A stretch of DNA of 64,000 nt, from assembly GCA_935421135.1 (NCBI GenBank), contig OW285192.1, positions 2,213,501 through 2,277,500 of the forward strand, given 5' to 3'. Numbering within the stretch: position 1 is the stretch's first letter; each line of letters opens with the position of its first letter. Shown here piece after piece: positions 1 to 64,000 of the stretch. The translations under genes were made by a program, and so were the position numbers. The stretch comes from Bugulina stolonifera. Taxonomy: Eukaryota; Bryozoa; Gymnolaemata; Cheilostomatida; Bugulidae. The notes under the pieces are model-generated. The model searched no databases and had not been told where the DNA came from. It saw only the letters and a program-made list of their open reading frames with translations.

Positions 1-183
1 GACTAGTTTGAATAGTAGAGAGGGTAGCAGATAACACAGAAGTATATATTGTGATACTTGAGTGAATCTCATTTCACTGTATAGCTATATAACGCATCTA
101 CCAAAGCATGTTTGTATATCTACATGTAACTTGTTACTAAATAACATCAACTCTTTACAAATACAGATAGTAGACAGATGGAT
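1..183 (-). other. Intron 10 unique sequence, duplicated at 60384-60566
   Basis: This segment matches 60384-60566 with about three differences. It shows that the left edge of the window is the same intron 10 as in the second FBXW7 copy, and that exon 11 should lie about 60 nt left of base 1. Confidence 0.9.
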
Positions 184-3100
184 GTAGTTTGTATGTACTG
201 TATTGTACTTACATATCGTCATGTAGGTGCATGTAGTTTGTATGTACTGTATAGTACTTACATATCGTCATGTAGGTATATGTAGTTTGTATGTACTGTA
301 TACTACTTACATATCGTCATGTAGGTATATGTAGTTTATATGTACTGTATAGTATCTACATATCGTCATGTAGGTATATGTAGTTTGTATGTACTGTATA
401 GTACTTACATATCGTCATGTAGGTATATGTAGTTTGTATGTACTGTATAGTACTTACGTATCGTCATGTAGGTATATGTAGTTTGTATGTACTGTATTGT
501 ACTTACATATCGTCATGTAGGTATAATATGTAGTTTGTATGTACTGTATAGTACTTACATATCGTCATGTAGGTATATGTAGTTTGTATGTACTGTATAG
601 TACTTACATATCGTCATGTAGGTATATGTCGTTTGTATGTACTGTATAGTACTTACATATCGTCATGTAGGTATATGTAGTTTGTATGTACTGTATAGTA
701 CTTACATATCGTCATGTAGGTATATGTAGTTTGTATGTACTGTATGGTACTTACATATCGTCATGTAGGTGTATGTAGTTTGTATGCACTGTATAGTACT
801 TACATATCGTCATGTAGGTATATGTAGTTTGTATGTACTGTATAGTACTTACATATCGTCATGTAGGTATATGTAGTTTGTATGTACTGTATAGTACTTA
901 CATATCGTCATGTAGGTATATGTAGTTTGTATGTACTGTATAGTACTTACATATCGTCATGTAGGTGTATGTAGTTTGTATGTACTGTACAGTACTTACA
1001 TATCGTCATGTAGGTATATGTAGTTTGTATGTACTGTATAGTATCTACATATCGTCATGTAGTTTGTATGTAGTTTGTATGTACTGTATAGTACTTACAT
1101 ATCGTCATGTAGGTATATGTAGTTTGTATGTACTGTATAGTACTTACATATCGTCATGTAGGTATATGTAGTTTGTATGTACTGTATAGTACTTACATAT
1201 CGTCATGTAGGTATATGTAGTTTGTATGTACTGTATAGTACTTACATATCGTCATGTAGGTGCATGTAGTTTGTATGTACTGTATAGTACTTACATATTG
1301 TCATGTAGGTATATGTAGTTTGTATGTACTGTACAGTACTTACATATCGTCATGTAGGTATATGTAGTTTGTATGTACTGTATAGTATCTACATATCGTC
1401 ATGTAGTTTGTATGTAGTTTGTATGTACTGTATAGTACTTACATATCGTCATGTAGGTATATGTAGTTTGTATGTACTGTATAGTACTTACATATCGTCA
1501 TGTAGGTATACGTAGTTTGTATGTACTGTATAGTACTTACATATCGTCATGTAGGTGCATGTAGTTTGTATGTACTGTATAGTACTTACATACCGTCATG
1601 TAGGTATATGTAGTTTGTATGCACTGTATAGTACTTACATATCGTCATGTAGGTGCATGTAGTTTGTATGTACTGTATAGTACTTACATATCGTCATGTA
1701 GGTATATGTAGTTTGTATGTACTGTATAGTACTTACATATCATCATGTAGGTGTATGTAGTTTGTATGTACTGTATAGTACTTACATATCGTCATGTAGG
1801 TATATGTAGTTTGTATGTACTGTATAGTACTTACATATCGTCATATAGGTATATGTAGTTTGTATGTACTGTACAGTACTTACATATCGTCATGTAGGTA
1901 TATGTAGTTTGTATGTACTGTATAGTACTTACATATCGTCATGTAGGTACATGTAGTTTGTATGTACTGTATTGTACTTACATATCGTCATGTAGGTATA
2001 TGTAGTTTGTATGTACTGTATAGTACTTACATATCGTCATGTAGGTGCATGTAGTTTGTATGTACTGTATAGTACTTACATACCGTCATGTAGGTATATG
2101 TAGTTTGTATGTACTGTATAGTACTTACATATCGTCATGTAGATATATGTAGTTTGTATGTACTGTATAGTACTTACATATCGTCATGTAGGTATATGTA
2201 GTTTGTATGTACTGTATAGTACTTACATATCGTCATGTAGGTATATGTAGTTTGTATGTACTGTATAGTACTTACATATCGTCATGTAGGTATATGTAGT
2301 TTGTATGCACTGTATAGTACTTACATATCGTCATGTAGGTGCATGTAGTTTGTATGTACTGTATAGTACTTACATACCGTCATGTAGGTGTATGTAGTTT
2401 GTATGTACTGTATAGTACTTACATATCGTCATGTAGGTATATGTAGTTTGTATGCACTGTATAGTACTTACATATCGTCATGTAGGTGCATGTAGTTTGT
2501 ATGTACTGTATAGTACTTACATATCGTCATGTAGGTATATGTAGTTTGTATGTACTGTATAGTACTTACATACCGTCATGTAGGTGTATGTAGTTTGTAT
2601 GTACTGTATAGTACTTACATATCGTCATGTAGGTATATGTAGTTTGTATGTACTGTATAGTACTTACATATCGTCATGTAGGTATATGTAGTTTGTATGT
2701 ACTGTATAGTACTTACATATCGTCATGTAGGTGTATGTAGTTTGTATGTACTGTACAGTACTTACATATCGTCATGTAGGTATATGTAGTTTGTATGTAC
2801 TGTATAGTATCTACATATCGTCATGTAGGTATATGTAGCTTGTATGTACTGTATAGTACTTACATATCGTCATGTAGGTATATGTAGTTTGTATGTACTG
2901 TATAGTACTTACATATCGTCATGTAGGTATATGTAGTTTGTATGTACTGTATTGTACTTAGATATCGTCATGTAGGTATATGTAGTTTGTATGTACTGTA
3001 TAGTACTTACATATCGTCATGTAGGTATATGTAGTTTGTATGTACTGTATAGTACTTACATATCGTCATGTAGGTATATGTAGTTTGTATGTACTGTATA

Positions 3101-6100
3101 GTACTTACATATCGTCATGTAGGTATATGTAGTTTGTATGTACTGTATAGTACTTACATATCGTCATGTAGGTATATGTAGTTTGTATGTACTGTATAGT
3201 ACTTACATATCGTCATGTAGGTGCATGTAGTTTGTATGTACTGTATTGTACTTACATATCGTCATGTAGGTATATGTAGTTTGTATGTACTGTATTGTAC
3301 TTACATATCGTCATGTAGGTATATGTAGTTTGTATGTACTGTATTGTACTTACATATCGTCATGTAGGTATATGTAGTTTGTATGTACTGTATAGTACTT
3401 ACATATCGTCATGTAGGTATATGTAGCTTGTATGTACTGTATAGTACTTACATATCGTCATGTAGGTATATGTAGTTTGTATGTACTGTATAGTACTTAC
3501 ATATCGTCATGTAGGTATATGTAGTTTGTATGTACTGTATAGTACTTACATATCGTCATGTAGGTATATGTAGTTTGTATGTACTGTATAGTACTTACAT
3601 ATCGTCATGTAGGTATATGTAGTTTGTATGCACTGTATAGTACTTACATATCGTCATGTAGGTATATGTAGTTTGTATGTACTGTACAGTACTTACATAT
3701 CGTCATGTAGGTATATGTAGTTTGTATGTACTGTATAGTACTTACATATCGTCATGTAGGTACATGTAGTTTGTATGTACTGTATAGTACTTACATATCG
3801 TCATGTAGGTATATGTAGTTTGTATGTACTGTATTGTACTTACATATCGTCATGTAGGTATATGTAGTTTGTATGTACTGTATAGTACTTACATATCGTC
3901 ATGTAGGTATATGTAGTTTGTATGTACTGTACAGTACTTACATATCGTCATGTAGGTATATGTAGTTTGTATGTACTGTATAGTACTTACATATCGTCAT
4001 GTAGGTACATGTAGTTTGTATGTACTGTATTGTACTTGCATACCGTCATGTAGGTGCATGTAGTTTGTATGTACTGTATAGTACTTACATATCGTCATGT
4101 AGGTATATGTAGTTTGTATGTACTGTATAGTACTTACATATCGTCATGTAGGTATATGTAGTTTGTATGTAGTGTATAGTACTTACATATCGTCATGTAG
4201 GTATATGTAGTTTGTATGTACTGTATAGTATCTACATATCGTCATGTAGGTATATGTAGTTTGTATGTACTGTATAGTACTTACATATCGTCATGTAGGT
4301 GCATGTAGTTTGTATGTACTGTATAGTACTTACTTATCGTCATGTAGGTATATGTAGTTTGTATGTACTGTATAGTACTTACATATCGTCATGTAGGTAT
4401 ATGTAGTTTGTATGTACTGTATAGTACTTACATATCGTCATGTAGGTATATGTAGTTTGTATGTACTGTATAGTACTTACATATTGTCATGTAGGTATAT
4501 GTAGTTTGTATGTACTGTATAGTACTTACATATCGTCATGTAGGTACATGTAGTTTGTATGTACTGTATTGTACTTACATATCGTCATGTAGGTATATGT
4601 AGTTTGTATGTACTGTATAGTACTTACATATCGTCATGTAGGTATATGTAGTTTGTATGTACTGTATGGTACTTACGTATCGTCATGTAGGTATATGTAG
4701 TTTGTATGTACTGTATAGTATCTACATATCGTCATGTAGGTATATGTAGTTTGTATGTACTGTATTATGCTTACATATCGTCATGTAGGTATATGTAGTT
4801 TGTATGTACTGTATAGTACTTACATATCGTCATGTAGGTATATGTAGTTTGTATGTACTGTATAGTATCTACATATCGTCATGTAGGTATATGTAGTTTG
4901 TATGTACTGTATACTACTTACATATCGTCATGTAGGTATATGTAGTTTGTATGTACTGTATAGTACTTACATATCGTCATGTAGGTATATGTAGTTTGTA
5001 TGTACTGTATTATGCTTACATATCGTCATGTAGGTATATGTAGTTTGTATGTACTGTATAGTACTTACATATCGTCATGTAGGTATATGTAGTTTGTATG
5101 TACTGTATAGTACTTACATATCGTCATGTAGGTATATGTAGTTTGTATGTACTGTATTGTACTTAGATATCGTCATGTAGGTATATGTAGTTTGTATGTA
5201 CTGTATAGTACTTACATATCGTCATGTAGGTATATGTAGTTTGTATGTACTGTATAGTACTTACATATCGTCATGTAGGTATATGTAGTTTGTATGTACT
5301 GTATTGTACTTAGATATCGTCATGTAGGTATATGTAGTTTGTATGTACTGTATAGTACTTACATATCGTCATGTAGGTATATGTAGTTTGTATGTACTGT
5401 ATAGTACTTACATATCGTCATGTAGGTATATGTAGTTTGTATGTACTGTATAGTACTTACATATCGTCATGTAGGTATATGTAGTTTGTATGTACTGTAT
5501 AGTACTTACATATCGTCATGTAGGTATATGTAGTTTGTATGTACTGTATTGTACTTAGATATCGTCATGTAGGTATATGTAGTTTGTATGTACTGTATAG
5601 TACTTACATATCGTCATGTAGGTATATGTAGTTTGTATGTACTGTATAGTACTTACATATCGTCATGTAGGTATATGTAGTTTGTATGTACTGTATTGTA
5701 CTTACATATCGTCATGTAGGTATATGTAGTTTGTATGTACTGTATAGTACTTACATACCGTCATGTAGGTGCATGTAGTTTGTATGTACTGTATTGTACT
5801 TAGATATCGTCATGTAGGTATATGTAGTTTGTATGTACTGTATAGTACTTACATATCGTCATGTAGGTATATGTAGTTTGTATGTACTGTATAGTACTTA
5901 CATATCGTCATGTAGGTATATGTAGTTTGTATGTACTGTATAGTACTTACATATCGTCATGTAGGTATATGTAGTTTGTATGTACTGTATAGTACTTACA
6001 TATCGTCATGTAGGTATATGTAGTTTGTATGTACTGTATAGTATCTACATATCGTCATGTAGGTATATGTAGCTTGTATGTACTGTATAGTACTTACATA

Positions 6101-9100
6101 TCGTCATGTAGGTATATGTAGTTTGTATGTACTGTATAGTACTTACATATCGTCATGTAGGTATATGTAGTTTGTATGTACTGTATTGTACTTAGATATC
6201 GTCATGTAGGTATATGTAGTTTGTATGTACTGTATAGTACTTACATATCGTCATGTAGGTATATGTAGTTTGTATGTACTGTATAGTACTTACATATCGT
6301 CATGTAGGTATATGTAGTTTGTATGTACTGTATAGTACTTACATATCGTCATGTAGGTATATGTAGTTTGTATGTACTGTATAGTACTTACATATCGTCA
6401 TGTAGGTATATGTAGTTTGTATGTACTGTATAGTACTTACATATCGTCATGTAGGTGCATGTAGTTTGTATGTACTGTATTGTACTTACATATCGTCATG
6501 TAGGTATATGTAGTTTGTATGTACTGTATTGTACTTACATATCGTCATGTAGGTATATGTAGTTTGTATGTACTGTATAGTACTTACATATCGTCATGTA
6601 GGTATATGTAGTTTGTATGTACTGTATAGTACTTACATATCGTCATGTAGGTATATGTAGTTTGTATGTACTGTATTGTACTTACATATCGTCATGTAGG
6701 TATATGTAGTTTGTATGTACTGTATAGTACTTACATATCGTCATGTAGGTATATGTAGTTTGTATGTACTGTATTGTACTTACATATCGTCATGTAGGTA
6801 TATGTAGTTTGTATGTACTGTATAGTACTTACATATCGTCATGTAGGTATATGTAGCTTGTATGTACTGTATAGTACTTACATATCGTCATGTAGGTATA
6901 TGTAGTTTGTATGTACTGTATAGTACTTACATATCGTCATGTAGGTATATGTAGTTTGTATGCACTGTATAGTACTTACATATCGTCATGTAGGTATATG
7001 TAGTTTGTATGTACTGTACAGTACTTACATATCGTCATGTAGGTATATGTAGTTTGTATGTACTGTATAGTACTTACATATCGTCATGTAGGTACATGTA
7101 GTTTGTATGTACTGTATAGCACTTACATATCGTCATGTAGGTATATGTAGTTTGTATGTACTGTATTGTACTTACATATCGTCATGTAGGTATATGTAGT
7201 TTGTATGTACTGTATAGTACTTACATATCGTCATGTAGGTATATGTAGTTTGTATGTACTGTACAGTACTTACATATCGTCATGTAGGTATATGTAGTTT
7301 GTATGTACTGTATAGTACTTACATATCGTCATGTAGGTACATGTAGTTTGTATGTACTGTATTGTACTTGCATACCGTCATGTAGGTGCATGTAGTTTGT
7401 ATGTACTGTATAGTACTTACATATCGTCATGTAGGTATATGTAGTTTGTATGTACTGTATAGTACTTACATATCGTCATGTAGGTATATGTAGTTTGTAT
7501 GTAGTGTATAGTACTTACATATCGTCATGTAGGTATATGTAGTTTGTATGTACTGTATAGTATCTACATATCGTCATGTAGGTATATGTAGTTTGTATGT
7601 ACTGTATAGTACTTACATATCGTCATGTAGGTGCATGTAGTTTGTATGTACTGTATAGTACTTACTTATCGTCATGTAGGTATATGTAGTTTGTATGTAC
7701 TGTATAGTACTTACATATCGTCATGTAGGTATATGTAGTTTGTATGTACTGTATAGTACTTACATATCGTCATGTAGGTATATGTAGTTTGTATGTACTG
7801 TATAGTACTTACATATCGTCATGTAGGTATATGTAGTTTGTATGTACTGTATTGTACTTACATATCGTCATGTAGGTATATGTAGTTTGTATGTACTGTA
7901 TAGTACTTACATATTGTCATGTAGGTATATGTAGTTTGTATGTACTGTATAGTACTTACATATCGTCATGTAGGTACATGTAGTTTGTATGTACTGTATT
8001 GTACTTACATATCGTCATGTAGGTATATGTAGTTTGTATGTACTGTATAGTACTTACATATCGTCATGTAGGTATATGTAGTTTGTATGTACTGTATGGT
8101 ACTTACGTATCGTCATGTAGGTATATGTAGTTTGTATGTACTGTATAGTATCTACATATCGTCATGTAGGTATATGTAGTTTGTATGTACTGTATTATGC
8201 TTACATATCGTCATGTAGGTATATGTAGTTTGTATGTACTGTATAGTACTTACATATCGTCATGTAGGTATATGTAGTTTGTATGTACTGTATAGTATCT
8301 ACATATCGTCATGTAGGTATATGTAGTTTGTATGTACTGTATGGTACTTACATATCGTCATGTAGGTATATGTAGTTTGTATGTACTGTATAGTACTTAC
8401 ATATCGTCATGTAGGTATATGTAGTTTGTATGTACTGTATTATGCTTACATATCGTCATGTAGGTATATGTAGTTTGTATGTACTGTATAGTACTTACAT
8501 ATCGTCATGTAGGTATATGTAGTTTGTATGTACTGTATAGTACTTACATATCGTCATGTAGGTATATGTAGTTTGTATGTACTGTATTGTACTTAGATAT
8601 TGTCATGTAGGTATATGTAGTTTGTATGTACTGTATAGTACTTACATATCGTCATGTAGGTATATGTAGTTTGTATGTACTGTATAGTACTTACATATCG
8701 TCATGTAGGTATATGTAGTTTGTATGTACTGTATTGTACTTAGATATCGTCATGTAGGTATATGTAGTTTGTATGTACTGTATAGTACTTACATATCGTC
8801 ATGTAGGTATATGTAGTTTGTATGTACTGTATAGTACTTACATATCGTCATGTAGGTATATGTAGTTTGTATGTACTGTATAGTACTTACATATCGTCAT
8901 GTAGGTATATGTAGTTTGTATGCACTGTATAGTACTTACATATCGTCATGTAGGTATATGTAGTTTGTATGTACTGTATAGTACTTACATATCGTCATGT
9001 AGGTACATGTAGTTTGTATGTACTGTATAGTACTTACATATCGTCATGTAGGTATATGTAGTTTGTATGTACTGTATAGTACTTACATATCGTCATGTAG

Positions 9101-9630
9101 GTATATGTAGTTTGTATGTACTGTATTGTACTTACATATCGTCATGTAGGTACATGTAGTTTGTATGTACTGTATAGTACTTACATATCGTCATGTAGGT
9201 ATATGTAGTTTGTATGTACTGTATAGTACTTACATATCGTCATGTAGGTATATGTAGTTTGTATGTACTGTATTGTACTTACATATCGTCATGTAGGTAT
9301 ATGTAGTTTGTATGTACTGTATTATACTTACATATCGTCATGTAGGTATATGTAGTTTGTATGTACTGTATAGTACTTACATATCGTCATGTAGGTATAT
9401 GTAGTTTGTATGCACTGTATTGTACTTACATATCGTCATGTAGGTATATGTAGTTTGTATGCACTGTATTGTACTTACATATCGTCATGTAGGTATATGT
9501 AGTTTGTATGTACTGTATAGTACTTACATATCGTCATGTAGGTATATGTAGTTTGTATGTACTGTATTGTACTTACATATCGTCATGTAGTTTGTATGTA
9601 CTGTATAGTACTTACATATCGTCATGTAGG
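184..9630 (-). repeat. 49-bp minisatellite, about 190 copies, intron 10 of FBXW7
   Basis: Unbroken direct tandem array of a 49-bp unit with few substitutions per copy. In gene orientation each unit carries CTACATGACGATAT|GTAAGT, which is the last codons of exon 10 plus its 5' splice site. The period was checked from positions 861 and 910. Recurring variants (C/T, A/G, T/A changes and TATTATGC) define subtypes. The second gene copy has only one such unit at 60560-60610. Confidence 0.95.
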
Positions 9631-9797
9631 TGCATACACCGTACAGTAGATGTATGTCCATGTAGGGTATGGAGACACTGGCCTGTCTCTGTATCCCACA
9701 CTCTCAGAGTACGATCTGTAGATCCACTTATAACGATGTTATCCTTCATCTGAGACGACCAGACGCCTCCTGTGTGACCGACCAACGTCCTCAGACA
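9616..9797 (-). CDS. FBXW7: FBXW7 exon 10, WD40 repeat 2 and start of 3
   Basis: Acceptor TTGCAG and donor GATAT|GTAAGT; 182 nt, phase 0 in and phase 2 out. It codes [20 protein letters not shown] through [19 protein letters not shown] and HTSTVR carry the arginines that contact phosphodegrons in human FBXW7. The last 14-17 nt plus the donor are multiplied about 190-fold in intron 10. Confidence 0.95.
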
Positions 9798-12700
9798 CTG
9801 CAAGTACAGACATATTCAATGCATATTATGGTATTAGTAATTACTTCCCCTGTACAAACACTGTACACGGTATTAGTAATTACTTCCCCTGTACATACAC
9901 TGTACACGGTATTAGTAATTACCTCCCCTGTACATACACTGGCACGCGATATTAGTAATTACCTCCCCTGTATATACACTGTACACGGTATTAGTAATTA
10001 CCTCCCCTGTACATACACTGAACACGGTATTAGTAATTACCTCCCCCGTACATACACTGTACACAGTATTAGTAATTACCTCCCCTGTATATACACTGTA
10101 CAAGGTATTAGTAATTATCTCCCCTGTATATACACTGTACATGGTATTAGTAATTACCTCCCCTGTCTCCACGTCCCACACCTTCAAGGTATTATCATCT
10201 GAGCCGCTGACTATTCTATTTCCTGAGAATTCCAGACAAGTTATGACATGATCATCATGACCTCGTAATATCTGTATAACAGAATACAAATGGCATGTTA
10301 GCTTAGCCAATCACAGCAGAGGTATTAAGATGCTTAACCAATCACAGTGCAGGCATCATGATTATCAAGTAGTCAACAAATTACCATACATGTGGCAAAA
10401 CAAATCATCCAAACAAGAACATATTTATATATACGGTGTATATATATCTCTGTGTACAAAGTATTCACTATTGACATAGAGAGAGGTACATTGTACACTC
10501 ATATACATGTACAAAGTATTCACTATTGACATAGAGAGAGGTACATTGTACACTCATATACATGTACAAAGTATTCACTATTGACATGGAAAGAGGTACA
10601 TTGTACACTCACATATATGTACAAAGTATTCACTATTGACATGGAAAGAGGTACATTGTACACTCACATATATGTACAAAGTATTCACTATTGACATGGA
10701 GAGCGGTACATTGTACATACCTTAGTAGGTTTCACCTCACCACACCTCCAGTGATGTTCTATAGTATGGGCTCTGAGGTACATGCTCTTCCAGTCAATGT
10801 TATCATCAGATGAACTCACTTCTATAGTACGATCAGAGCAGCTGGTATTATCATCTAAGGACTCTCCTGGGTCAGTACTAAGGGACTGGGACTTGTATAT
10901 GAGACCTATAACACAGTACTCATCTGTATGTAGCTATATATGAGACCTATAACACAGTACTCATCTGTATGTAGCTATATATGAGACCTATAACACAGTA
11001 CTCATCTGTATGTTGCTATATATGAGACCTATAACACAGTACTCATCTGTATATAGCTATATATGAGACCTATAACACAGTACTCATCTGTATGTAGCTA
11101 TATATGAGACCTATAACACAGTACTCATCTGTATGTTGCTATATATGAGACCTATAACACAGTACTCATCTGTATGTAGCCATATATGAGACCTATAACA
11201 CAGTACTCATCTGTATGTAGCTATATATGAGACCTATAACACAGTACTCATCTGTAGGTTGCTATATATGAGACCTATAACACAGTACTCATCTGTATGT
11301 AGCTATATATTAGACCTATAACACAGTACTCATCTGTATGTAGCTATATATGAGACCTATAACACAGTACTCATCTGTATGTAGCTATATATGAGACCTA
11401 TAACACAGTACTCATCTGTATGTAGCTATATATGAGACCTATAACACAGTACTACTTATCTCTTTGTAGCCAGTGATCCACACACAAGTACAGACATCAA
11501 CTACCTGCCCGCATAGTGATACACCATATAGGCTTGTTATCTCTGTTATGTTTCTGCATTCTGCATTCTTGCACGTGAAAGGTGTAAAGTGCTTCCAAAC
11601 TATTATAAATCACTCCCATAACCACAAAAAAACAATTATAATGATGTGGGAAAATCTAGCCGGCAGTAAATTCCTTGCACAAGGGACACATTTGGTTGAA
11701 AGCTGACTTAAACACACTTAAATATACTTGACACACACTTGAAACACATTAGACATGTAGGCCTACTGGACTTGACCTGCACTCGATATGTACTTGACCT
11801 GCACTCGATATGTACTTGACCTGCACTCTATATGTACCCGATATGTACTTGACCTGCACTCTATATGTACTTGACCTGCACTCTATATGTACTTGACCTG
11901 CACTCTATATGTACTTGACCTGCACTCTATATGTACTTGACCTGCACTCTATATGTATCCGATATGTACTTGACCTACACTCGATATGTACTCGATAGAT
12001 TACCTAAGTCAGCGCCACTCTCTCGACATTTCTGTTTCCAGAGGAGGGTGTCTTCAGTGAGAGCTCTCCAGTATTGGCATGTCTGACCAGCTCGCAGCAA
12101 GTCTTTTGGAGTGAGGAAGGAGAGAACATACAGAGCCAGCTGGAAAATACACCAGTAACACCATTAATACAGTACACATATACAATTTAAGTACACATTG
12201 TAATGCTATAATACTAGTGTTGCACGGTGTTTCGGTATCATTCAGTTTTTATCCTTTGGCTCAAAAGCCGCGAAAATTTATAATGCGAACCAATACCGAA
12301 TGTAGCGGTTCGGTATGATTCAGTTTTAAAAATCAAACCGCGCCTGCCTCCTTAGCGCACCCACTTCCGATAATGGCTGGTGTTGTGAACACGTGAATTC
12401 ATATTATGTATTTTTCAATCTTTATAATCCGATGTCACCCTTGGAATACAGACGTACATGTAGCTGCAGCAATCATTGTCACCCAGTAATGACTTACTTT
12501 AGTTTCACTCAATTCTAGTAGTTATACTTGCATATTATTATAAATAATTAGTATTTAATAATTGTGATTTATTAGAGAAAATTCAAAATGGCACCCATTA
12601 CAGTTAAACGCAGAGTGCGACTACTCCCAAAATTGAGTATTCAGTTTTCGGTTCGACTCGGTGTTTTTTCCTAGATTTAAAAAACTGAATTAAACCGAGG

Positions 12701-15700
12701 GGTAGAAAACAACTTCGGTATCCATACTAATATACTAACACCATACTAATTTACTAATATACTAATATACTAATAAATACTAATATACTAATATATTAAT
12801 ATTATACTAATATACTAAGATATATACTAATGTAGTAGTGCTGGGCGGTTTGGATTTAGATGTACATTCAGTTTTTTTGCTGATTTTTTAAAAAAACTGA
12901 ATGTACATCTAAATTCAAACCGCCCAGTACTACTATAGTTTATACTAGTAATAGCTGTAATACATGTAGGTATAGATATGTCAATAGAAGTACACATTGT
13001 AATGCTATATACTAGTAATAGCAGCATTCTCGCTAACGAATAAAGCATAAAACCGCAAGAGAGATCCAGTAGATCATCGCAAGGTTCCTAAGCTAAACTC
13101 ACCTCTTTGGGAAGAAGGGAAATGAAATCTCTTTGGAACTGAGGCTCAATAACTGCCATGATATGCCGGACATGGGGAGCATCGCAAGAGTCTATTAGCT
13201 GATTAAGTGCATACGTCTTGTCAGCACTGTCCCACGACTTGAACACCTGCAGCCAGCTGTCAAGATGCTTAGGTGGCCTGGACTTGCACGAACTGCGTCT
13301 CCTGCTAAATATAGCACTCAGTTATAATATAGCTGGATGTACAGTCACTACTAACCACATGGAATAAGATGCTATACAATAGACTGAGTACCTACCTGGA
13401 CGGCGTTTGTGGGGAAACATGGAAGTGCCCGTACTGGGATGAGCTAGGACTATTACTATATGATTGTATATTGAGTATCATGCTGGCACTGCCATCAGAT
13501 ATTCCAACAGACATTCCTCTCACACGCTTGCCAGGGGAGGATAACTCTCTCTCAGCTTCTGACTTCCTTTTGTGTGCCTGAAGTATGTTTCAGTATGTAA
13601 TAGAAAGACATAGGCTGACTCTCACCACTACTGCTACTGCTACACTGCCACTACTACAATGTACTACCACTACTACTACTACTGCTATCACTACTACCAC
13701 TACTACTACCGCCACCACTACTACCGCTACTAGCACTACCACTACTACTACTACCACTACTACCACCACTACTACTACGACCACTACTACTACTACTACC
13801 ACTGCTACAACTACGACCACTACTACTGCTATTACTACTACTGCTACTATTATTACTGCTGCTACACTACTACTACTACCACTACTACCACCACTACCAC
13901 TACCACCACTACCACTACTACTACCACTACTACTACTACCACTACTGGAATTATTTTGACACCTACCAGTACATAGTCGGGTGATACATCATCTGCAGCA
14001 TGGCATGTATTACTGGATATAGTGTTTATGGGTTGATATGTCGTATTCTCGTGTAACCTGGAGCACCTGCCAGAGGTGGGGCTGCTTATGGTCGGTAGAC
14101 TGAGTGATGACAAGGATACGCAGGTGTTACTGTTTATAGAATCACAGGATATCTTCACAGGATCACTCATTAATCTGTAGAATAATCACATGAAATACTT
14201 GACAGCAAAGCAGTACCTAGCCTCAGTATCTAGACTCAGTACCTAGACACAGTACCTAGACTCAGTACCTAGACCCAATACCTAGACTCAGTACCTAGAC
14301 TCAGTACCTAGCCTACATACATGCAGTGTACAGCCCTACAGATGTCTTGGGATTGGCCTATCCTTTAGCAAACTTGTAGCTGAGGTGCATGCATGGTAAA
14401 GTTGTGTACTTATACACCTATACCATGTACATCCCATGGAATATGTAACTCATGGAATAACCCAGCCAACACCAATTGAAACTGGGTAATCATGTGTGTA
14501 CCATAGCAGCCTACACATAACATTGCGTGTGCTGTGCTACATATAATTATACTGATCTAATGTGTAGCCTACAGTGCAATGACCTTTTACTGACCTTGGA
14601 GTCGCACAGTTCATACGATAATACTAGTAAGTTACAGCTAATAATACGTCCTTTAATAAAATGTGAACAAGAAGCAAACGCTACATACTTATTTTCACTC
14701 GACAATTTCTCAAGTAATTTGACTACACCAGCTACTAATCTCAAGACCTAAATAGCAGTGTATAATAAGTGTGTGGCAATATCCATGGTGCCAGACCTGT
14801 GAATTTCGTTTGTGGCGTCGTATGAAGAAACTCATCTATAACTCACTAGACAGGAAATAAAATGTCATTTAACAGGTGCAAGTACATTGGCCTATATACA
14901 TTGCACATACATGTAGAGCCTACCTACAGTGTAGATTTTTATGAATGCTTTTCCAGATTTTGCACAAATCAACAAGGTTTGGTAAATACAGTACGGTACG
15001 TCCGATTGGCTGATAGTCAAAATGACAAACTGACTGCTTCCTGTCTACTGAGTGACTGACTCATTGATCTACTGTCTCGCTGATCTACTGACTCGCTGAT
15101 CTACTGACTTGCTGACATACTGACTCATTGACCTAATGACTCACTGACCTACTGACCTACCGACTTACTGACCTACTGACTCACTGACCTACCGACTCAC
15201 TGACCTACTGACTCACTGACCTACTGTCCCGCTGATCTACTGACTCACTGATCTACTGACTCGCTGATCTACTGACTTGCTGACATACTGACTCATTGAC
15301 CTAATGACTCACTGACCTACTGACTCACTGACCTACCGACTTACTGACCTACTGACTCACTGACCTACTGACTCACCGACCTACTGACTCACCGACGTAC
15401 TGAAATACTATCGGACTGACTTACTGTGGGTGTGATGCACTAGAATAAAAGGTATTGCCAGTGTCCACTGTTAGTGTATCAGTAATGGTATGAGATGTAG
15501 TGGCAGCTGGTGGCCTCTCCTGCAGACTGCAGCACTTTGATACAGTTGATACATGTACTTCTGTAGCAGCACTATAATACAGTAAGTAATGAGTAGTATA
15601 GAATAGCACTATAATAGATAGTAGCTACAGTGCTGGGGTAGCATACAATGTACCTGTAGGAACTGGGGATAATGCTTTTCCCTTTTAAAAGGATTTATAA

Positions 15701-19886: not shown

Positions 19887-20276
19887 TGGTGTCAGAATAG
19901 TGCACCTACGCCGTAAAGACAGTACCTGAGTTAAACCATATGAAGTTTGGTGGGGAGTAGGTTCATTGAAAGAAAGGTTACCTAACTAGTGTGACGTTGC
20001 TGATGGTGATTGATTATATCATTATTCGGATTATTCATCGATTGAATTGAAATTAAAGTTGAGTTGAAATTGGAACTCAGTCGCTAGTAGAGTGAACTAC
20101 TATTTTTAGTAGTTGCCAACTAAGATAAGTTAGGTCATTTCTAGTTTGATTGAACTAGAGCATCAATAACAATAGGAGGTGATTCTTTTTTTCATACGTC
20201 ATTGTGATTGCTGAGTGAAAGTGTGACTGCACTTGATCTTATTATTCTGAGTGTCTCCATTATTAACATCGGCGAT

Positions 20277-21155
20277 ATGGCGGAGGGCTCCTCGACCAGA
20301 GACGACCGGTTCGTGAAAAAAATTGATTTTTCAAGTGAATCGCTAGCGCTTGATTGGAAAACATTCAAGGCACAGTTTGATATTTTCAAAGTAGCAAAAA
20401 AATGGGGAGATATGGAAGAGGAAGAAAGAATCGCAAACTTGCTTGTCCTAATGGGCCCGGAAAGTGTGCCAATATATACCCAGTTTCAATTTGACGAGGA
20501 CGTGCCCGAAAGAGCAAAAACTCTGGCAAATACTATTGCAATGCTTGACGCTCATTTCGAGCCAGTAAAGAATGTTATCTATGAGCGGGTGAAATTCAAC
20601 AACATAAGACAGGGTAGTAGTACAATACATAAATTCATTACCGAACTGCAGTCCCAAGCAGATAACTGTGAATATGGTGTTGTGAGAGATGAGCTGATTC
20701 GGGATAGAATTGTAGTGGGGGTAACAGACAATAAATTAAGAGAGTACCTTATCGACACTGATGACTTAACACTGCAAAAAGCTATCCAGAGGGCGAAGCA
20801 ATACATAAGCCATCATGAACACGCGGCCATAATGAGTAATAGTGTCGCAGAAGATAATCTGGACACTGTGAGGGGTCGTCATGGACCACGAAGAAACAAC
20901 ACATCTAGGCAGCCGGCTAGTGAGGGGTCTCAGAAAGCAGACAAAAAGAAATGCCCATATTGTGCATGGAGGAGACATGCTAGAGACCAGTGCCCTGCGC
21001 GGAATGCAACATGTTATAAATGTAAAGGAACCGGCCATTGGGCAAAGGCGTGCAAGGGTAAGAGAGAGTCAGGCAGCGGATTGGAGACCAGAACTGAGGA
21101 AGTTGATTGCCAGGAGGAAATGGACGGATTGTTCTTGGGGGATCCGACATTATGA
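20277..21155 (+). CDS. Ty3/gypsy-type gag, left copy
   Basis: Gag-like polyprotein of a retrotransposon, 292 residues from the ATG at 20277. The frame is open from 20208, but the ATG after GGCGAT is preferred because sequence upstream looks like leader. Capsid-like helical region up to about residue 190, then a Cys-rich CPYC...C motif and a zinc knuckle CYKCKGTGHWAKAC (CX2CX4HX4C) for nucleic-acid binding. It ends in TGA followed by CTAG, and pol continues in the same frame. Appears intact. Confidence 0.85.
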   Translation: MAEGSSTRDDRFVKKIDFSSESLALDWKTFKAQFDIFKVAKKWGDMEEEERIANLLVLMGPESVPIYTQFQFDEDVPERAKTLANTIAMLDAHFEPVKNVIYERVKFNNIRQGSSTIHKFITELQSQADNCEYGVVRDELIRDRIVVGVTDNKLREYLIDTDDLTLQKAIQRAKQYISHHEHAAIMSNSVAEDNLDTVRGRHGPRRNNTSRQPASEGSQKADKKKCPYCAWRRHARDQCPARNATCYKCKGTGHWAKACKGKRESGSGLETRTEEVDCQEEMDGLFLGDPTL

Positions 21156-22295
21156 CTAGGGACGTGCGAGTCGGTAGAGTCCACAGCCAGGTCACGGTTA
21201 ATTAATGTGAAGGTAAATGGGACGCCAGTAAAATTTAAAGTTGATACAGGGGCTGCTGTCACAGCAATGCCGGCGCACATGGAACGATACTGCAAAGGTC
21301 TGCTCGGGCCATCTAGAAAAGTATTAAAAGGAGCAGGCAACAATAGACTACTGGTAACGGGGGAGGCAGAGGCCACCCTGGAACTGAATGGTAAGAAAAC
21401 CAAAGGGACTGTTTACTTTATAAAGGGGCTAGTTATGCCGCTTTTGGGGAAGCCTTCTATTGAGCACCTCGATATAATCCGGTTCATGGATAGTGTAGGT
21501 CTGGGTGGGTGCCCTGACTGGAAAGCAATGTATCCCAAACTATTCAGAGGTCTTGGAACAATGGAAAATGAGGTGGACATTCAGCTGAAGGAGGACGTGA
21601 TGCCCTTTGTGCAGACTGCCCCTAGGCGAGTAGCTGCTGCACGCAAGAAGCCGCTACTGGAGGAGCTACGTCGAATAGAGAAACTCGGAGTTATTGAGAA
21701 AGTGGAGACTCCGACAGATTGGTGCTCTCCTTGTTTAGTTCTACCTGAGAAAAACAGGAAACTTAGGGTGTGTATTGACTTCACACAATTAAATAAAGCC
21801 GTGAAAAGGGAGTACCATCCACTACCAACCTCGGAAGAGACGTTTGTCGCGTTGGGAAATTCACGAATATTTAGCAAACTGGACGCCAACTGCGGATATT
21901 GGCAAATAAGGTTGAGTAAAGGGTCACATTTGCTAACCACATTTATAACTCCTTTTGGCAGGTACTGTTGCAAACGACTTCCATTTGGAATTAATTCAGC
22001 CCCAGAGATTTTTCAACGAGAAATGCAGAAAGTATTAATGGGCCTGGATGGAGTTGTCTGTCAAATGGACGACATATTAGTCTACGCAGAGACTCGACAA
22101 GAGCATGATGCCATTCTAAAGCAAGTTTTTGATAGGGTGAGAGCAAGCGGTGTCTCTCTTAATGCGGACAAGTGTAAGTTCAACAAGGCGGAGGTGAAAT
22201 TTCTGGGTCACGTAATTGGGTCAGAGCGTATCAAGGCTGACCCCGAAAAAACTAGATTCACTAGGCGTCGGCGTTTCTTTATGTGCTGGTTGTAG
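21156..22295 (+). pseudogene. Truncated pol: protease and partial RT, left copy
   Basis: In frame with gag after one TGA. The protease motif DTGAA is near 21244, then a linker, then RT with FSKLDANCGYWQ and the catalytic QMDDILVY. The retrotransposon sequence stops at 22254 inside the RT, where the inverted copy joins; the remaining 14 codons to 22295 are read from the other copy's opposite strand. RNase H and integrase are missing, so this copy cannot be autonomous. Confidence 0.85.
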
Positions 22296-22580
22296 AGGTC
22301 GAAGTTGATCGGATATATGGTTCAAATGTTGGAAACTATGTTTAGTGACTTTAATCCTGTCATCCACTGACTGAATATGGATTTTGGGGTTCCTACCGCA
22401 AAATCTAACGGGTCCGATCAGAATATATATAAATGAGTTAGCGAATAGAACAGGATCCTTTAACACATGCAAGACCACCATTTCCCATCAGTTGGCCCCT
22501 GGAATACACACTGTTGTCCAAGAGCTAGATGTAACATGTTTAACTAAAGAATTACCGATGAGGAAGGTCTGCATGCTACA
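22230..22580 (-). pseudogene. Possible SGNH-hydrolase-like fragment downstream of pol
   Basis: In the orientation of the right copy, the sequence after pol encodes FLIGNSLVKHVTSSSW then VCIPGA, resembling block I of SGNH/GDSL hydrolase-like domains (GDS-x-V/L with a following PGA), but with GNS in place of GDS. A frame change near 22485 leads to a further 86-codon frame. Weak similarity; it may be only 3' non-coding element sequence. Confidence 0.25.
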
Positions 22581-22595
22581 ACATGAAAAAGAGTT

Positions 22596-25500: not shown

Positions 25501-25683
25501 GCCTGCTCCTTTTAATACTTTTCTAGATGGCCCGAGCAGACCTTTGCAGTATCGTTCCATGTGCGCCGGCATTGCTGTGACAGCAGCCCCTGTATCAACT
25601 TTAAATTTTACTGGCGTCCCATTTACCTTCACATTAATTAACCGTGACCTGGCTGTGGACTCTACCGACTCGCACGTCCCTAG
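22596..25683 (-). pseudogene. Ty3/gypsy-type pol, right copy: protease, RT, RNase H, integrase
   Basis: Reads in frame with gag after TGA. Order: protease DTGAA; RT with QMDDILVY; RNase H with SADSSSFGLGAAL, EKEALAICW and TDHKPL; then a break at about 23890. A second shift of 2 nt at about 23750 returns to frame, giving the HHCC finger (HSGHQ ... CSRC) and an integrase core with the D,D,E pattern (VDYYSRF region, SDNGPQF, NGETERAVR). A stop at 22834-22836 and a frame change precede a typical gypsy-like pol end, RPPKRLNL, at 22596. No envelope gene or 3' LTR seen. Multiple breaks indicate an inactive copy. Confidence 0.85.
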
Positions 25684-26567: not shown

Positions 26568-26954
26568 ATCGCCGATGTTAATAATGGAGACACTCAGAAT
26601 AATAAGATCAAGTGCAGTCACACTTTCACTCAGCAATCACAATGACGTATGAAAAAAAGAATCACCTCCTATTGTTATTGATGCTCTACTTCAATCAAAC
26701 TAGAAACGACCTAACTTAACTTAGTTGGCAACTACTAATAGTAGTTCACTCTACTAGCGACTGACTTCCAATTTCAACTCAACTTTAATTTCAATTCAAT
26801 CGATGAATAATCCGAATAATGATATAATCAATCACCATCAGCAACGTCACACTAGTTAGGTAACCTTTCTTTCAATGAACCTACTCCCCACCAAACTTCA
26901 TATGGTTTAACTCAGGTACTGTCTTTACGGCGTAGGTGCACTATTCTGACACCA

Positions 26955-57853: not shown

Positions 57854-57959
57854 CTAGAGACAGACATAGGATAAATTATCAATACACAGTGAGCTGTCAT
57901 AGCATGTTACTTAACAGTGATGGAAATGAGTACTGACTAGATACAATGCTGCATAACTT

Positions 57960-59697
57960 AGTACTTACCTACAGATAGTAGATACTATGGGAGGTAGAAC
58001 TTACCTACAGATGGTAGATACTATGCGAGGTAGTACTTACCTACAGATAGTAGATACTATGGGAGGTAGTATTTACCTCCAGATAGTAGATACTATGGCA
58101 GGTAGTACTTACCTACAGATAGTAGATACTATGGGAGGTAGTACTATTACCTACAGATAATAGATACTATGGGAGGTAGTACTTACCTACAGATAGTAGA
58201 TACTATGGGAGGTACTACTTACCTCCAGATAGTAGATACTATGGGAGGTAGTACTTACCTACAGATGGTAGATACTATGGGAGGTAGTACTTACCTACAG
58301 ATAGTAGATACTATGGGAGGTAGTACTTACCTACAGATGGTAGATACTATGGGAGGTAGTACTTACCTACAGATGGTAGATACTATGGGAGGTAGTACTT
58401 ACCTACAGATAGTAGATACTATGGGAGGTAGTAGTTACCTACAGATAGTAGATACTATGGGAGGTAGTACTTACGTACAGATAGTAGATACTATGGGAGG
58501 TAGTACTTACATACAGATAGTAGATATTATGGGAGGTAGTACTTATCTACAGAGAGTAGATACGATGGGAGGTACTACTTACCTACAAATAGTAGATACT
58601 ATGGGAGGTAGTACGTACCTACAGATGGTAGATACTATGGGAGGTAGTACTTACCTACAGATAGTAGATACTATGAGAGGTAGTACTTACCTACAGATGG
58701 TAGATACTATGGGAGGTAGTACTTACCTACAGATAGTAGATACTGTGGGGGTAGTATTTACCTCCAGATAGTAGATACTATGGCAGGTAGTACTTACCTA
58801 CAGATAGTAGATACTATGGGAGGTAGTACTTACCTACAGATAGTAGATACTAAGGGAGGTAGTACTTACCTACAGATAGTAGATACTATGGGAGGTAGTA
58901 CTTTATCTACAGATAGTAGATACTATGGGAGGTAGTACGTACCTACAGATGGTAGATACTATGGGAGGTAGTACTTACCTACAGATAGTAGATACTATGA
59001 GAGGTAGTACTTACCTACAGATGGTAGATACTATGGGAGGTAGTACTTACCTACAGATAGTAGATACTGTGGGGGTAGTATTTACCTCCAGATAGTAGAT
59101 ACTATGGCAGGTAGTACTTACCTACAGATAGTAGATACTATGGGAGGTAGTACTTACCTACAGATAGTAGATACTATGGGAGGTAGTACTTACCTACAGA
59201 TAGTAGATACTATGGGAGGTAGTCCTTTATCTACAGATAGTAGATACTATGAGAGGTAGTACTTACGTACAGATAGTAGATACTATGGGAGGTAGTACTT
59301 ACATACAGATAGTAGATGCTATGGGAGGTAGTACTTACATACAGATAGTAGATACTATGGGAGGTAGTACTTATCTACAGAGAGTAGATACGGTGGGAGG
59401 TACTACTTACCTACAAATAGTAGATACTATGGGAGGTAGTACGTACCTACAGATGGTAGATACTATGGGAGGTAGTACTTACCTACAGATAGTAGATACT
59501 ATGAGAGGTAGTACTTACCTACAGATGGTAGATACTATGGGAGGTAGTACTTACCTACAGATAGTAGATACTGTGAGAGGTAGTACTTACCTACAGATAG
59601 TAGATACTATGGGAGGTAGTACTTACCTACAGATAGTAGATACTATGGGAGGTAGTACTTACGTACAGATAGTAGATACTATGAGAGGTAGTACTTA
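57960..59697 (-). repeat. 36-bp array carrying the exon 12 donor, about 48 copies
   Basis: In gene orientation units contain ATCTGTAG|GTAAGTACTACC. The real donor is CTCTCCAG|GTAAGTACTACC. Blocks of several units recur (58600-58760 and 58930-59070; also 59440-59570), showing segmental amplification. Plus-strand 12-residue repeating frames are a by-product. Confidence 0.92.
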
Positions 59698-59698
59698 C

Positions 59699-59803
59699 CT
59701 GGAGAGAGTAGACCCTGTTTGTGTGACCTTGGAGTACGTGTATACAGGCGTGTGTTACTGGGTCCCACACTCTTACTGTGTAATCATAAGCACCACTAAC
59801 CAC
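59699..59803 (-). CDS. FBXW7: FBXW7 copy 2 exon 12, WD repeat
   Basis: Acceptor TGTGCAG, donor CTCCAG|GTAAGTACT; phase 0 both ends. Encodes VVSGAYDYTVRVWDP and GHTNRVYSLQ. The donor is the template of the 36-bp array. Confidence 0.92.
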
Positions 59804-60324: not shown

Positions 60325-60594
60325 CTAGAATACACACAGCGTAACTATAAGTAACCTACAGGAGTTAGTAGAGTCAGCAATTGACTAGTTTGAATAGTAG
60401 AGAGGGTAGCAGATAACACAGAAGTATATATTGTGATATTTGAGTGAATCTCATTTCACTGTATAGCTATATAACGCATCTACCAAAGCATGTTTGTATA
60501 TCTACACGTAACTTGTTACTAAATAACATCAACTCTTTACAAATACAGATAGTAGACAGATGAATGTAGTTTGTATGTACTGTATTGTACTTAC

Positions 60595-60776
60595 ATATCG
60601 TCATGTAGGTGCATACACCGTACAGTAGATGTATGTCCATGTAGGGTATGGCGACACTGGCCTGTCTCTGTATCCCACACTCTCAGAGTACGATCTGTAG
60701 ATCCACTTATAACGATGTTATCCTTCATCTGAGACGACCAGACCCCTCCTGTGTGACCGACCAACGTCCTCAGACA
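60595..60776 (-). CDS. FBXW7: FBXW7 copy 2 exon 10
   Basis: 182 nt like copy 1, open, with a Leu to Arg change (GQCRHTL instead of GQCLHTL). It is followed by a single 49-bp unit, not an array. Confidence 0.92.
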
Positions 60777-60799: not shown

Positions 60800-61350
60800 G
60801 CATATTATGGTATTAGTAATTACTTCCCCGGTACAAACACTGTACACGGTATTAGTAATTACTTCCCCTGTACATACACTGTACACGGTATTAGTAATTA
60901 CTTCCCCTATACAAACATTGTATGTTGTATTAGCAATCACCCCCCCCCCCCCGGCACTTATACTATGAATTGTGGGATATCTGTGACTGCTTCCCCTGTA
61001 CATACACTGTACACGGTACTAGTAATTACCTCCCCTGTACATACACTGGCATACGGTATTAGTAATTACCTCCCCTGTACATACACTGGCACGCGGCATT
61101 AGTAATTACCTCCCCTGTACATACACTGGTGCACGGTATTAGTAATTAACTCCCCTGCACATACACTGTACACGGTATTAGTAATTACCTCCCCTGTATA
61201 ATTATACACTGTACACGGTATCAGTAATTACCTCCCCTGTACATACACTGTACACGGTATTAGTAATTACCTCCCCTGTATATACACTGTACACGGTATT
61301 AGTAATTACCTCCCCTGTACATACACTGAACACGGTATTAGTAATTACCT
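60800..61350 (-). repeat. 39-bp array, FBXW7 copy 2 intron 9
   Basis: About 13 units homologous to 9830-10165, interrupted at 60940-61000 by a poly-C run and a short unrelated stretch. Confidence 0.88.
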
Positions 61351-61437
61351 CCCCTGTCTCCACGTCCCACACCTTCAAAGTATTATCATCTGAGCCGCTG
61401 ACTATTCTATTACATGATCATCATGACCTCGTAATAT
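61349..61437 (-). pseudogene. FBXW7: FBXW7 copy 2 exon 9 with 25-bp deletion
   Basis: Splice sites are conserved, but 25 bp in the middle of the WD1 coding part are absent compared with 10158-10271, causing a frameshift. Confidence 0.9.
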
Positions 61438-61589
61438 CTGTATAACAGAATACAAATGTCATGTTAGCTTAACCAATCACAGTGCAGGCATCATGATTAT
61501 CAAGTAGTCAACAAATAACCGTACATGTGGCAAAACAAATCATCCAAACAAGAACATATTTATATATACGGTGTATATATATCTCTGTG

Positions 61590-61752
61590 TACAAAGTATT
61601 CACTATTGACATGAAGAGAGGTACATTGTAACACTCACATAATTATATGTACAAAGTATTCACTATTGACATAGAGAGAGGTACATTGTACACCCACATA
61701 TATGTACAAAGTATTCACTATTGACATGGAGAGAGAGGTACAATGGACATAC
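61590..61752 (-). repeat. 55-bp array, FBXW7 copy 2 intron 8
   Basis: About three units matching 10440-10719, again starting at the exon 8 donor. Confidence 0.8.
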
Positions 61753-61937
61753 CTTAGAAGGTTTCACCTCACCACACCTCCAGTGATGTTCTATAGTATG
61801 GGCTCTGAGGTACATGCTCTTTCAGTCAATGTTATCATCAGATGAACTCACTTCTATAGTATGATCAGAGCAGCTGGTATTATCATCTAAGGACTCTCCT
61901 GGGTCAGTACTAAGGGTCTGGGACTTGTATATGAGAC
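61753..61937 (-). pseudogene. FBXW7: FBXW7 copy 2 exon 8 with nonsense codon
   Basis: 185 nt as in copy 1, but the Trp codon in DNIDWKSM is TGA. Confidence 0.88.
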
Positions 61938-61938
61938 C

Positions 61939-63388
61939 TATAACACAGTACTCATCTGTATGTAGCTATATATGAGACCTATTTAACACAGTACTCATCT
62001 GTATGTAGCTATATATGAGACCTATAACACAGTACTCATCTGTATGTAGCTATATTTTAGACCTATAACACAGTACTCATCTGTATGTTGCTATATATGA
62101 GACCTATAACACAGTACTCATCTGTATGTAGCTATATATGAGACCTATAACACAGTACTCATCTGTATGTAGCTATATATTAGACCTATAGCACAGTACT
62201 CATCTGTATGTAGCTATATATGAGACCTATAACACAGTACTCATCTGTATATAGCTATATAAAAAATATGAGACCTATAACACAGTACTCATCTGTGTGT
62301 TGCTATATATGAGACCTATAACACAGTACTCATCTGTATGTAGCTATATATGAGACCTATTACACAGTACTCATCTGTATATAGCTACATATGAGACCTA
62401 TAACACAGTACTCATCTGTATGTAGCTATATATGAGACCTATAACACAGTACTCATCTGTATGTAGCTATATATGAGACCTATAACACAGTACTCATCTG
62501 TATGTAGCTATATTTTAGACCTATAACACAGTACTCATCTGTATGTTGCTATATATGAGACCTATAACACAGTACTCATCTGTATGTAGCTATATATTAG
62601 ACCTATAGCACAGTACTCATCTGTATGTAGCTATATATGAGACCATCCTATAACACAGTACTCATCTGTATGTAGCTATATATGAGACCTATAACACAGT
62701 ACTCATCTGTATGTAGCTATATATGAGACCATCCTATAACACAGTACTCATCTGTATGTAGCTATATATGAGACCTATAACACAGTACTCATCTGTATGT
62801 AGCTATATTTTAGACCTATACCACAGTACTCATCTGTATGTAGCTATATATGAGACCTATAACACAGTACTCATCTGTATGTAGCTATATATGAGACCTA
62901 TAACACAGTACTCATCTGTATGTTGCTATATATGAGACCTATAACACAGTACTCATCTGTATGTAGCTATATATGAGACCTATAACACAGTACTCATCTG
63001 TATGTTGCTACATTTTAGACCTATAACACAGTACTCATCTGTATGTAGCTATATATGAGACCTATAACACAGTACTCATCTGTATGTAGCTATATATTAG
63101 ACCTATAACACAGTACTCATCTGTATGTTGCTATATATGAGACCTATAACACAGTACTCATCTGTATGTAGCTATATATGAGACCTATAACACAGTACTC
63201 ATCTGTATGTAGCTATATATTAGACCTATAACACGGTACTCATCTGTATGTAGCTATATATGAGACCTATAACACAGTACTCATCTGTATGTTGCTACAT
63301 TTTAGACCTATAACACAGTACTCATCTGTATGTAGCTATATATGAGACCTATAACACAGTACTCATCTGTATGTAGCTATATATTAGA
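61939..63388 (-). repeat. 41-bp array, FBXW7 copy 2 intron 7, about 35 copies
   Basis: Homologous to 10907-11460 but about 2.7 times longer, with TATTTTAG, TATATTAG and CCATCCTATAA variants that recur in blocks. Confidence 0.9.
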
Positions 63389-63988: not shown

Positions 63989-64000
63989 ATAAGAAACTTA

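What the first reader, a model, noticed from the sequence alone, without database searches (positions are those of the whole stretch)
184..15422. Splice-site-seeded minisatellites in FBXW7 introns
At several FBXW7 exon borders a tandem array starts at the splice site, and its units contain a copy of that site. Donor-type: intron 10 (GATAT|GTAAGT, 49 bp), intron 9 (GGGGAG|GTAATT, 39 bp), intron 3 (CA|GTRAGTCAG, 16 bp) and, in copy 2, intron 12 (AG|GTAAGTACTACC, 36 bp). Acceptor-type: intron 7 (GTTATAG|GTCTCATAT, 41 bp). Intron 8 (55 bp) and the left end of intron 7 (22 bp) also begin at donors. Unit lengths and sequences are unrelated, so this is a repeated process and not one spreading satellite. 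I know of no named class of such arrays. Possible causes: slippage or repair seeded at exon ends, R-loops at donors, or selection for redundant splice sites.
Basis: partly seen in the sequence, partly recalled or inferred. Interest (0 to 1): 0.92.

Follow-up and report, generated by a model that had tools for sequence, protein, structure and literature searches.

The report
Tandem arrays anchored at intron edges
A bryozoan gene carries short tandem repeats that start at the ends of its exons and copy the splice signal over and over; this resembles the 'mirage' repeats described in lancelet genes, and a few other genes of the same genome show it too.

Summary
The arrays are real. In the intact FBXW7 copy (minus strand), four arrays span a splice site (three donors, one acceptor) and carry 9-16 nt of exon; three more start 3-10 nt inside an intron. 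Splicing exons 5-12 at the outermost donors gives one open frame that aligns to human FBXW7 without gaps at junctions i6-i11. The genome matches Bugulina stolonifera, a bryozoan. 'No named class' is wrong: such arrays are called 'mirages' in amphioxus, and tandem repeats at exon-intron boundaries are also reported in human paralogs. Two damaged FBXW7 copies have nearly the same array edges but very different unit numbers (193, 1 and 15 for the 49-bp array). Genome-wide, two donor 9-mers sit in tandem pairs 6-20 times more often than control words; the one acceptor word tested shows no excess. In an independent sample of 154 donors, array starts cluster within about 90 nt of the splice site; 5 reach the exon side, and in 3-4 of these the unit clearly repeats the donor. 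The donor itself is not duplicated more often than the next 15-60 nt of intron, so splice-site-specific seeding is not shown. Verdict: a new member of a known kind, in a phylum where my searches found no report.

The parts
182..9631 (-).
   Evidence: TRF; array overlaps the last 16 nt of the exon and its unit holds GATAT|GTAAGT; block-duplication signal at offsets of 68 and 70 units
9616..9797 (-). FBXW7 exon 8 (my numbering), ending ..GATAT|GTAAGT
   Evidence: aligned to human FBXW7
9830..10166 (-).
10158..10271 (-). FBXW7 exon 7, ending GGGGAG|GTAATT
10453..10717 (-).
10721..10905 (-). FBXW7 exon 6, starting TTATAG|GTCTCATAT
10896..11453 (-).
11770..11997 (-). 22-bp array, starts 6 nt inside intron i5 at its donor end
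12004..12139 (-). FBXW7 exon 5 (F-box part)
15055..15403 (-). 16-bp array, 22 units, in intron i1; link to an exon end unproven
57959..59712 (-). 36-bp array of FBXW7 copy 2, 48.7 units, spans the donor of its exon 10
   Evidence: 14 nt of exon overlapped in all three copies
60558..60614 (-). single copy of the 49-bp unit in FBXW7 copy 2, at the same exon end and donor
60809..61357 (-). 39-bp array of copy 2, 13.6 units
61588..61735 (-). 55/60-bp array of copy 2
61928..63388 (-). 41-bp acceptor array of copy 2, interrupted by a 9.5-kb insertion and continuing outside the window

Best explanation
These are mirage-type minisatellites: short tandem duplications born at intron edges, some of them across the exon-intron junction. 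They are tolerated because the outermost copy keeps the true exon end and splice site, while the extra copies lie inside the intron. Once there are two copies, unit number changes quickly by slippage and unequal or block exchange; the number of units varies while the near edge stays. Shown: anatomy, unit content, nearly the same edges with differing unit number in three FBXW7 copies, an open reading frame when the outermost donors are used, and presence in other genes. Inferred: that the outermost donor is used in RNA, that tolerance rather than benefit keeps the arrays, and the mutational steps. A concentration of array starts in the first ~90 nt of introns is supported statistically in a small sample; its cause is unknown.
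For: Unit content and edges. Splicing exons 5-12 at the first donors gives one open frame of 461 aa that aligns to human FBXW7 2ovp with no gap at junctions i6 to i11 (E 1.1e-214). Reading past the first donor meets an in-frame stop within 1-69 nt at 6 of 7 donors (exons 5-11), and at 243 nt at the seventh. Unit numbers in copies 1/2/3: 193/1/15 (i8), 16.7/48.7/12.7 (i10), 84/about 2/3 (i11), with near edges within about 5 nt of each other. Block duplication at offsets 68 and 70 units, 12-13% identical against a median of 1.1%. Other genes: a condensin exon (Pfam Cnd3 2e-21) with a 36-bp unit made of 30 nt exon and 6 nt intron, and a monocarboxylate transporter exon with a 41-bp unit. Genome-wide tandem pairs per single word: CAGGTAAGT 680/4476 against 16/1440 reversed and 17/2290 for a one-base change; AAGGTATGT 402/4086 against 64/3786 reversed.
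Against: No RNA evidence: donor use is inferred. The word controls are not matched for position in genes, so part of the 6-20-fold excess only says that donors lie where arrays lie. Of 8 CAGGTAAGT arrays read upstream, 2 abut exons proved by homology, 2 have open frames only, 1 lies beside a kinase exon on the other strand and 3 show no coding evidence. The acceptor case in FBXW7 is harder to tolerate under this model, because decoy acceptors lie upstream of the real one.
Confidence: 0.72

Rival explanations
1. A mutational process acts on donor sites themselves (for example transcription- or splicing-coupled breaks, R-loops) and seeds arrays exactly there.
For: Two donor words are strongly over-represented in tandem pairs, while the one acceptor word tested is not (58/7857 against 20/2598 reversed). 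Array near-edges peak within 30 nt of donors (10 of 154 sites).
Against: The 20-mer at the donor is duplicated in 4/143 cases, against 4/135 to 7/112 in interior intron windows. The exact 9-mer at the donor is duplicated in 1/154, against 4/154 at +15 and +30; at acceptors 2/143 against 3/143 and 4/143. Starts spread over about 90 nt.
Confidence: 0.15
2. Extra donors are kept by selection, for redundancy or U1 recruitment.
For: Most inner units keep the donor hexamer (for example 165/190 in the 49-bp array of copy 1). In 6 of 8 FBXW7 arrays it is kept better than the mean of the other hexamers of the unit.
Against: In the largest array it is kept worse than the mean (0.87 against 0.93), and in i10 of copy 1 it falls below every other hexamer (0.60; others 0.67-1.00). 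In 7 of 8 arrays it lies inside the range of the other hexamers; the favourable arrays have 4-44 inner units. Large arrays are present in damaged copies (48.7 units in copy 2).
Confidence: 0.08
3. A geometric effect only: arrays arise anywhere in short introns and appear to start at splice sites because exons stop them.
For: Median intron 354 bp in 45 introns with both ends called. No exon-interior 20-mer was duplicated in the sample.
Against: The 7 array-bearing introns of the sample are still 215-953 bp when arrays are collapsed. The start excess survives a rough intron-length correction (p 0.006). Four FBXW7 arrays and 5 of 154 sampled donors have arrays reaching the exon side, two of the five by only 1 and 3 nt. 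The direct simulation on 7 introns is weak (p 0.31, 0.09 and 0.03 for three window sizes at donors, no excess at acceptors).
Confidence: 0.2
4. Assembly artefact.
For: Long arrays are hard to assemble, and copies 2 and 3 could be false duplications.
Against: Unrelated units, three copies with different lesions and 97.0-97.6% identity outside arrays, and the same anatomy in unrelated genes.
Confidence: 0.03

Closest known systems
Mirage minisatellites of amphioxus (Adh3, globin, troponin C, PGBD5 genes)
   Same: Tandem units that contain an exon-intron boundary; donor and acceptor types; unit lengths of tens of bp (Adh3 10-72 bp, globin and PGBD5 60-160 bp); length instability; splicing reported undisturbed (passages of PMC3087553, and PMC3902484)
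   Different: Different phylum (bryozoan against cephalochordate); up to 193 units here against the 2-7 quoted for globin and PGBD5 (the Adh3 number was not seen); no RNA data here
Variable tandem repeats at exon-intron boundaries of human genes in segmental duplications
   Same: Minisatellite-sized repeats (mean unit about 30 bp, repeated 4 times) at exon-intron boundaries, varying between recent gene copies (passages of PMC2812944)
   Different: There they are reported to change splicing and form novel introns, with RNA support; here no RNA was seen, arrays are longer, and two of three copies are damaged
Intron gain by tandem duplication of AGGT-containing segments
   Same: Tandem duplication that copies splice signals
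   Different: There a new intron is made from exon sequence; here the copies lie inside introns whose neighbouring exons align to human FBXW7 without inserted residues. Known to me from listings and recall
Ordinary intronic minisatellites
   Same: Tandem units, variable number
   Different: Here the first unit includes or adjoins the functional splice site

Membership tests
Mirage minisatellites | Tandem unit contains an exon-intron boundary | tested here: met
   i7, i8, i10 donors and i6 acceptor; condensin exon
Mirage minisatellites | Both donor and acceptor boundaries can be duplicated | tested here: met
   FBXW7 i6 acceptor array in three copies
Mirage minisatellites | Unit number unstable between alleles or copies | tested here: met
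   193/1/15 units between FBXW7 copies; these are paralogous copies, alleles were not seen
Mirage minisatellites | Somatic instability, as reported at Adh3 | not testable with these tools
   no read data
Mirage minisatellites | mRNA splicing not disturbed | not testable with these tools
   only the conceptual splice product was checked
Intron gain by tandem duplication | Novel intron position | not tested
   intron positions of other species were not compared

The most novel reading that the evidence does not exclude
Bryozoan donors are hotspots for the birth of tandem arrays through a process coupled to transcription or splicing, so that a noticeable share of donors (5 of 154 sampled have an array on the exon side) carries a self-copying splice site. 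That would make mirages a general animal route to intron growth and new exons.
Probability: 0.2. Interest if true: 0.82.

Novelty: new member of a known kind. Interest (0 to 1): 0.5.

Why it matters
Mirages have been reported for a handful of lancelet genes, and boundary repeats for human paralogs; both were proposed as a source of new introns. A bryozoan with many such arrays, a chromosome-scale assembly and public RNA-seq makes it possible to ask which splice site is used, how arrays are born, and whether they create introns or exons. The three FBXW7 copies give a natural series of 1, 15 and 193 units at the same boundary.

Tried and rejected
Assumed first that copy 2 shows the ancestral single-unit state; rejected as unproven, because the three copies are almost equidistant (97.6, 97.0 and 97.5%), so copy 2 may have contracted.

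A unit-specific pattern search found nothing and was uninformative. The simulation on introns with both ends known was underpowered (7 introns). The original mirage paper (Canestro et al. 2002, NAR) is not held (with a wrongly recalled DOI, and 41); it is cited through PMC3087553. My searches listed no report of such arrays in bryozoans; outside lancelets they did list the human paper PMC2812944, of which I read passages. The other listed papers were not opened, apart from PMC2206037 and PMC2632668, whose passages name no such arrays.

At least eight pairs of places of the acceptor word lie in opposite orientation 7-15 kb apart, perhaps transposon ends, so the acceptor count is if anything inflated.

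Sample limits. 140 loci were used (30 kinase, 70 WD40, 40 kinesin), taken in rank order from the hit tables with some rows skipped, so they are not random. Dropped before counting: splice-site calls with a PWM score or margin of 1 or less. One search made 279 calls; 204 distinct sites remained, and with extra exons 154 donors and 143 acceptors from 108 and 104 loci. Exon ends are model calls, not annotation, and some will be wrong; some exons lie in the same genes. In one search units with more than 10 mismatches or indels were dropped (for example 7 of about 13 kept in i7 of copy 2). The 17 distinct CAGGTAAGT arrays and the 5 control arrays were counted by eye from the listings; the listing stops at 100 places (C1 up to 23.3 Mb).
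Full report
What was checked. The window is C6:2213501-2277500 of a 235-Mb genome. The lengths seen here for ten contigs (C1-C7 and C9-C11: 36.81, 28.45, 26.37, 20.48, 20.27, 19.55, 19.49, 16.36, 16.13, 14.31 Mb) match those printed for Bugulina stolonifera, an erect bryozoan (passages of PMC10213821). The paper gives 30 scaffolds; the held copy has 27 contigs.

Anatomy. FBXW7 lies on the minus strand. Splicing exons 5-12 (my numbers) at their outermost donors gives one open frame of 461 aa. It aligns to human FBXW7 (2ovp, E 1.1e-214) with no gap at junctions i6 to i11; the gaps lie within exon 6. The N-terminal exons were not included. Arrays spanning a splice site: the 49-bp array (16 nt of exon), the 39-bp array (9 nt), the 36-bp array of i10 (14 nt; in copy 1 it lies left of the window) and the 41-bp array at an acceptor (10 nt). 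Arrays starting just inside an intron: 55 bp (+3), 22 bp (+6) and 52 bp (+10). Further out: a 3-bp repeat (+20) and a 20-bp array (+41). Of 11 donors, i1, i3 and i4 have no array starting within 50 nt.

Three copies. Copy 2 (window 57.6 kb to beyond the window end) and copy 3 (C6 about 2.41-2.42 Mb, L063 and L064) carry arrays at the same places, with near edges within about 5 nt. Unit numbers differ in copies 1/2/3: i8 193/1/15, i10 16.7/48.7/12.7, i11 84/about 2/3, i6 acceptor 13.6 / 35.2 plus 10.6 / 4.6. Copy 2 has a stop codon in exon 6 and a frame break in exon 7, and no exon 12 was found on its strand in window 17501-57700; copy 3 has a stop codon in exon 5. The copies are nearly equidistant, 97.0-97.6% identical over about 2050 sites outside arrays, so the single unit of copy 2 may be ancestral or a contraction. 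The 49-bp array has units identical at offsets of 68 and 70 units far above the median, so part of it grew by block duplication.

Which donor is used. In copy 1, reading past the first donor meets an in-frame stop 1-69 nt later at six of seven donors and 243 nt later at the seventh, intron i7, where the 39-bp units keep the frame open for a while. This supports use of the outermost donor but is not RNA evidence.

Independent sample. From kinase, WD40 and kinesin exons elsewhere in the genome I called splice sites with a PWM and codon model. Among 154 donors, array near-edges number 5 at -30 to 0, 5 at 0-30, 3 at 30-60, 2 at 60-90, and then 1 per 30 nt up to 240. Among 143 acceptors they number 0, 5, 2, 1, 1, 1, 5, 1, 0 over the same nine bins. 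Donor excess within 30 nt against 90-240 nt: p 0.002, or 0.006 with a rough correction for intron survival; acceptors p 0.30. The five donors with an array on the exon side are L023, L057, L086, L100 and L112, at -9, -18, -3, -13 and -1 nt; a copy of the 14 nt around the donor recurs downstream with 1, 1, 3, 1 and 5 mismatches, so the last is doubtful. The exact donor 9-mer has a copy 25-55 nt on in 1/154, against 4/154 at +15 and at +30; with one mismatch allowed 3/154 against 7/154 and 9/154. A placement simulation on the 7 array-bearing introns with both ends called gave p 0.31, 0.09 and 0.03 for windows of 10, 16 and 25 nt at donors, and no case at acceptors.

Genome-wide words. Tandem pairs 16-46 nt apart per single occurrence: CAGGTAAGT 680/4476, its reverse 16/1440; CAGCTAAGT, one base from the donor, 17/2290 in 5 arrays; AAGGTATGT 402/4086, its reverse 64/3786; the acceptor word TTTGCAGG 58/7857, its reverse 20/2598. 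The CAGGTAAGT pairs form 17 distinct arrays with differing units in the first 23.3 Mb of C1 (counted by eye). Single counts include copies inside arrays, and the controls are not matched for position in genes, so the ratios (14, 20, 6 and 1) are not birth rates.

Other genes. I read upstream of the first 8 of those 17 arrays. L149 abuts an exon of condensin subunit 3 (Pfam Cnd3, 2e-21); its 36-bp unit is 30 nt of exon end plus 6 nt of intron. L151 abuts a monocarboxylate transporter exon (all 8 PDB matches are such transporters, best E 0.0038; no Pfam match), with a unit of 41 bp. L145 and L150 have open frames without homology. L147 lies beside a kinase exon read from the other strand, thus at its acceptor. 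L146, L148 and L152 show no coding evidence.

Selection on decoys. Donor hexamer intact in inner units, against the mean of other hexamers: 49-bp array 165/190 against 0.93 (copy 1) and 13/13 against 0.91 (copy 3); i10 9/15 against 0.83, 35/44 against 0.77 and 10/11 against 0.66 (copies 1, 2, 3); i7 5/6 against 0.78, 7/7 against 0.87 and 4/4 against 0.78. Six of eight are above the mean and two, the largest included, below; seven of eight lie inside the range of the other hexamers. There is no consistent sign that inner donors are kept or purged.

Known class. [quoted passage not shown] PMC3902484 (passages) adds PGBD5 and mentions troponin C. PMC2812944 (passages) reports variable minisatellites at exon-intron boundaries of human genes in segmental duplications, some forming novel introns. 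My searches (listed under Tried and rejected) listed none in bryozoans; the library holds open-licence papers only.

Conclusion. This is a member of the mirage kind in a phylum where I found no report of it. The most economical mechanism is tandem duplication at intron edges, tolerated because the outermost splice site stays intact, followed by fast turnover. A donor-specific birth process stays possible but is not shown.

Noticed in passing
63389-64000 and L032 1-8857: The 41-bp array of FBXW7 copy 2 is interrupted by a 9.5-kb insertion with ~540-bp terminal inverted repeats (97% alike), a likely 6-bp target duplication (by eye) and a frame resembling a type-B DNA polymerase (by eye); it looks like a Maverick/Polinton-type element (family features recalled).
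   Followed up: partly
20208-26636: Two retrotransposon-like gag-pol stretches with nearly identical open frames lie in opposite orientation (ORF list).
   Followed up: no
54197-57201: 26-bp array of 115 units in which a ~1.25-kb block recurs (TRF reports the same sub-array at 54642 and 55890), again block duplication.
   Followed up: no
29426-29804 and 31478-31584: The same 28-bp unit, holding a TACTAAC branch-point-like word, forms arrays at two places 2 kb apart in a plus-strand gene that may encode immunoglobulin-like domains (by eye).
   Followed up: no
genome-wide: The control word CAGCTAAGT often occurs in pairs about 192-195 nt apart, which suggests a dispersed repeat family.
   Followed up: no
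genome-wide: Pairs of the acceptor word often lie in opposite orientation 7-15 kb apart, which suggests ends of a transposon family.
   Followed up: no
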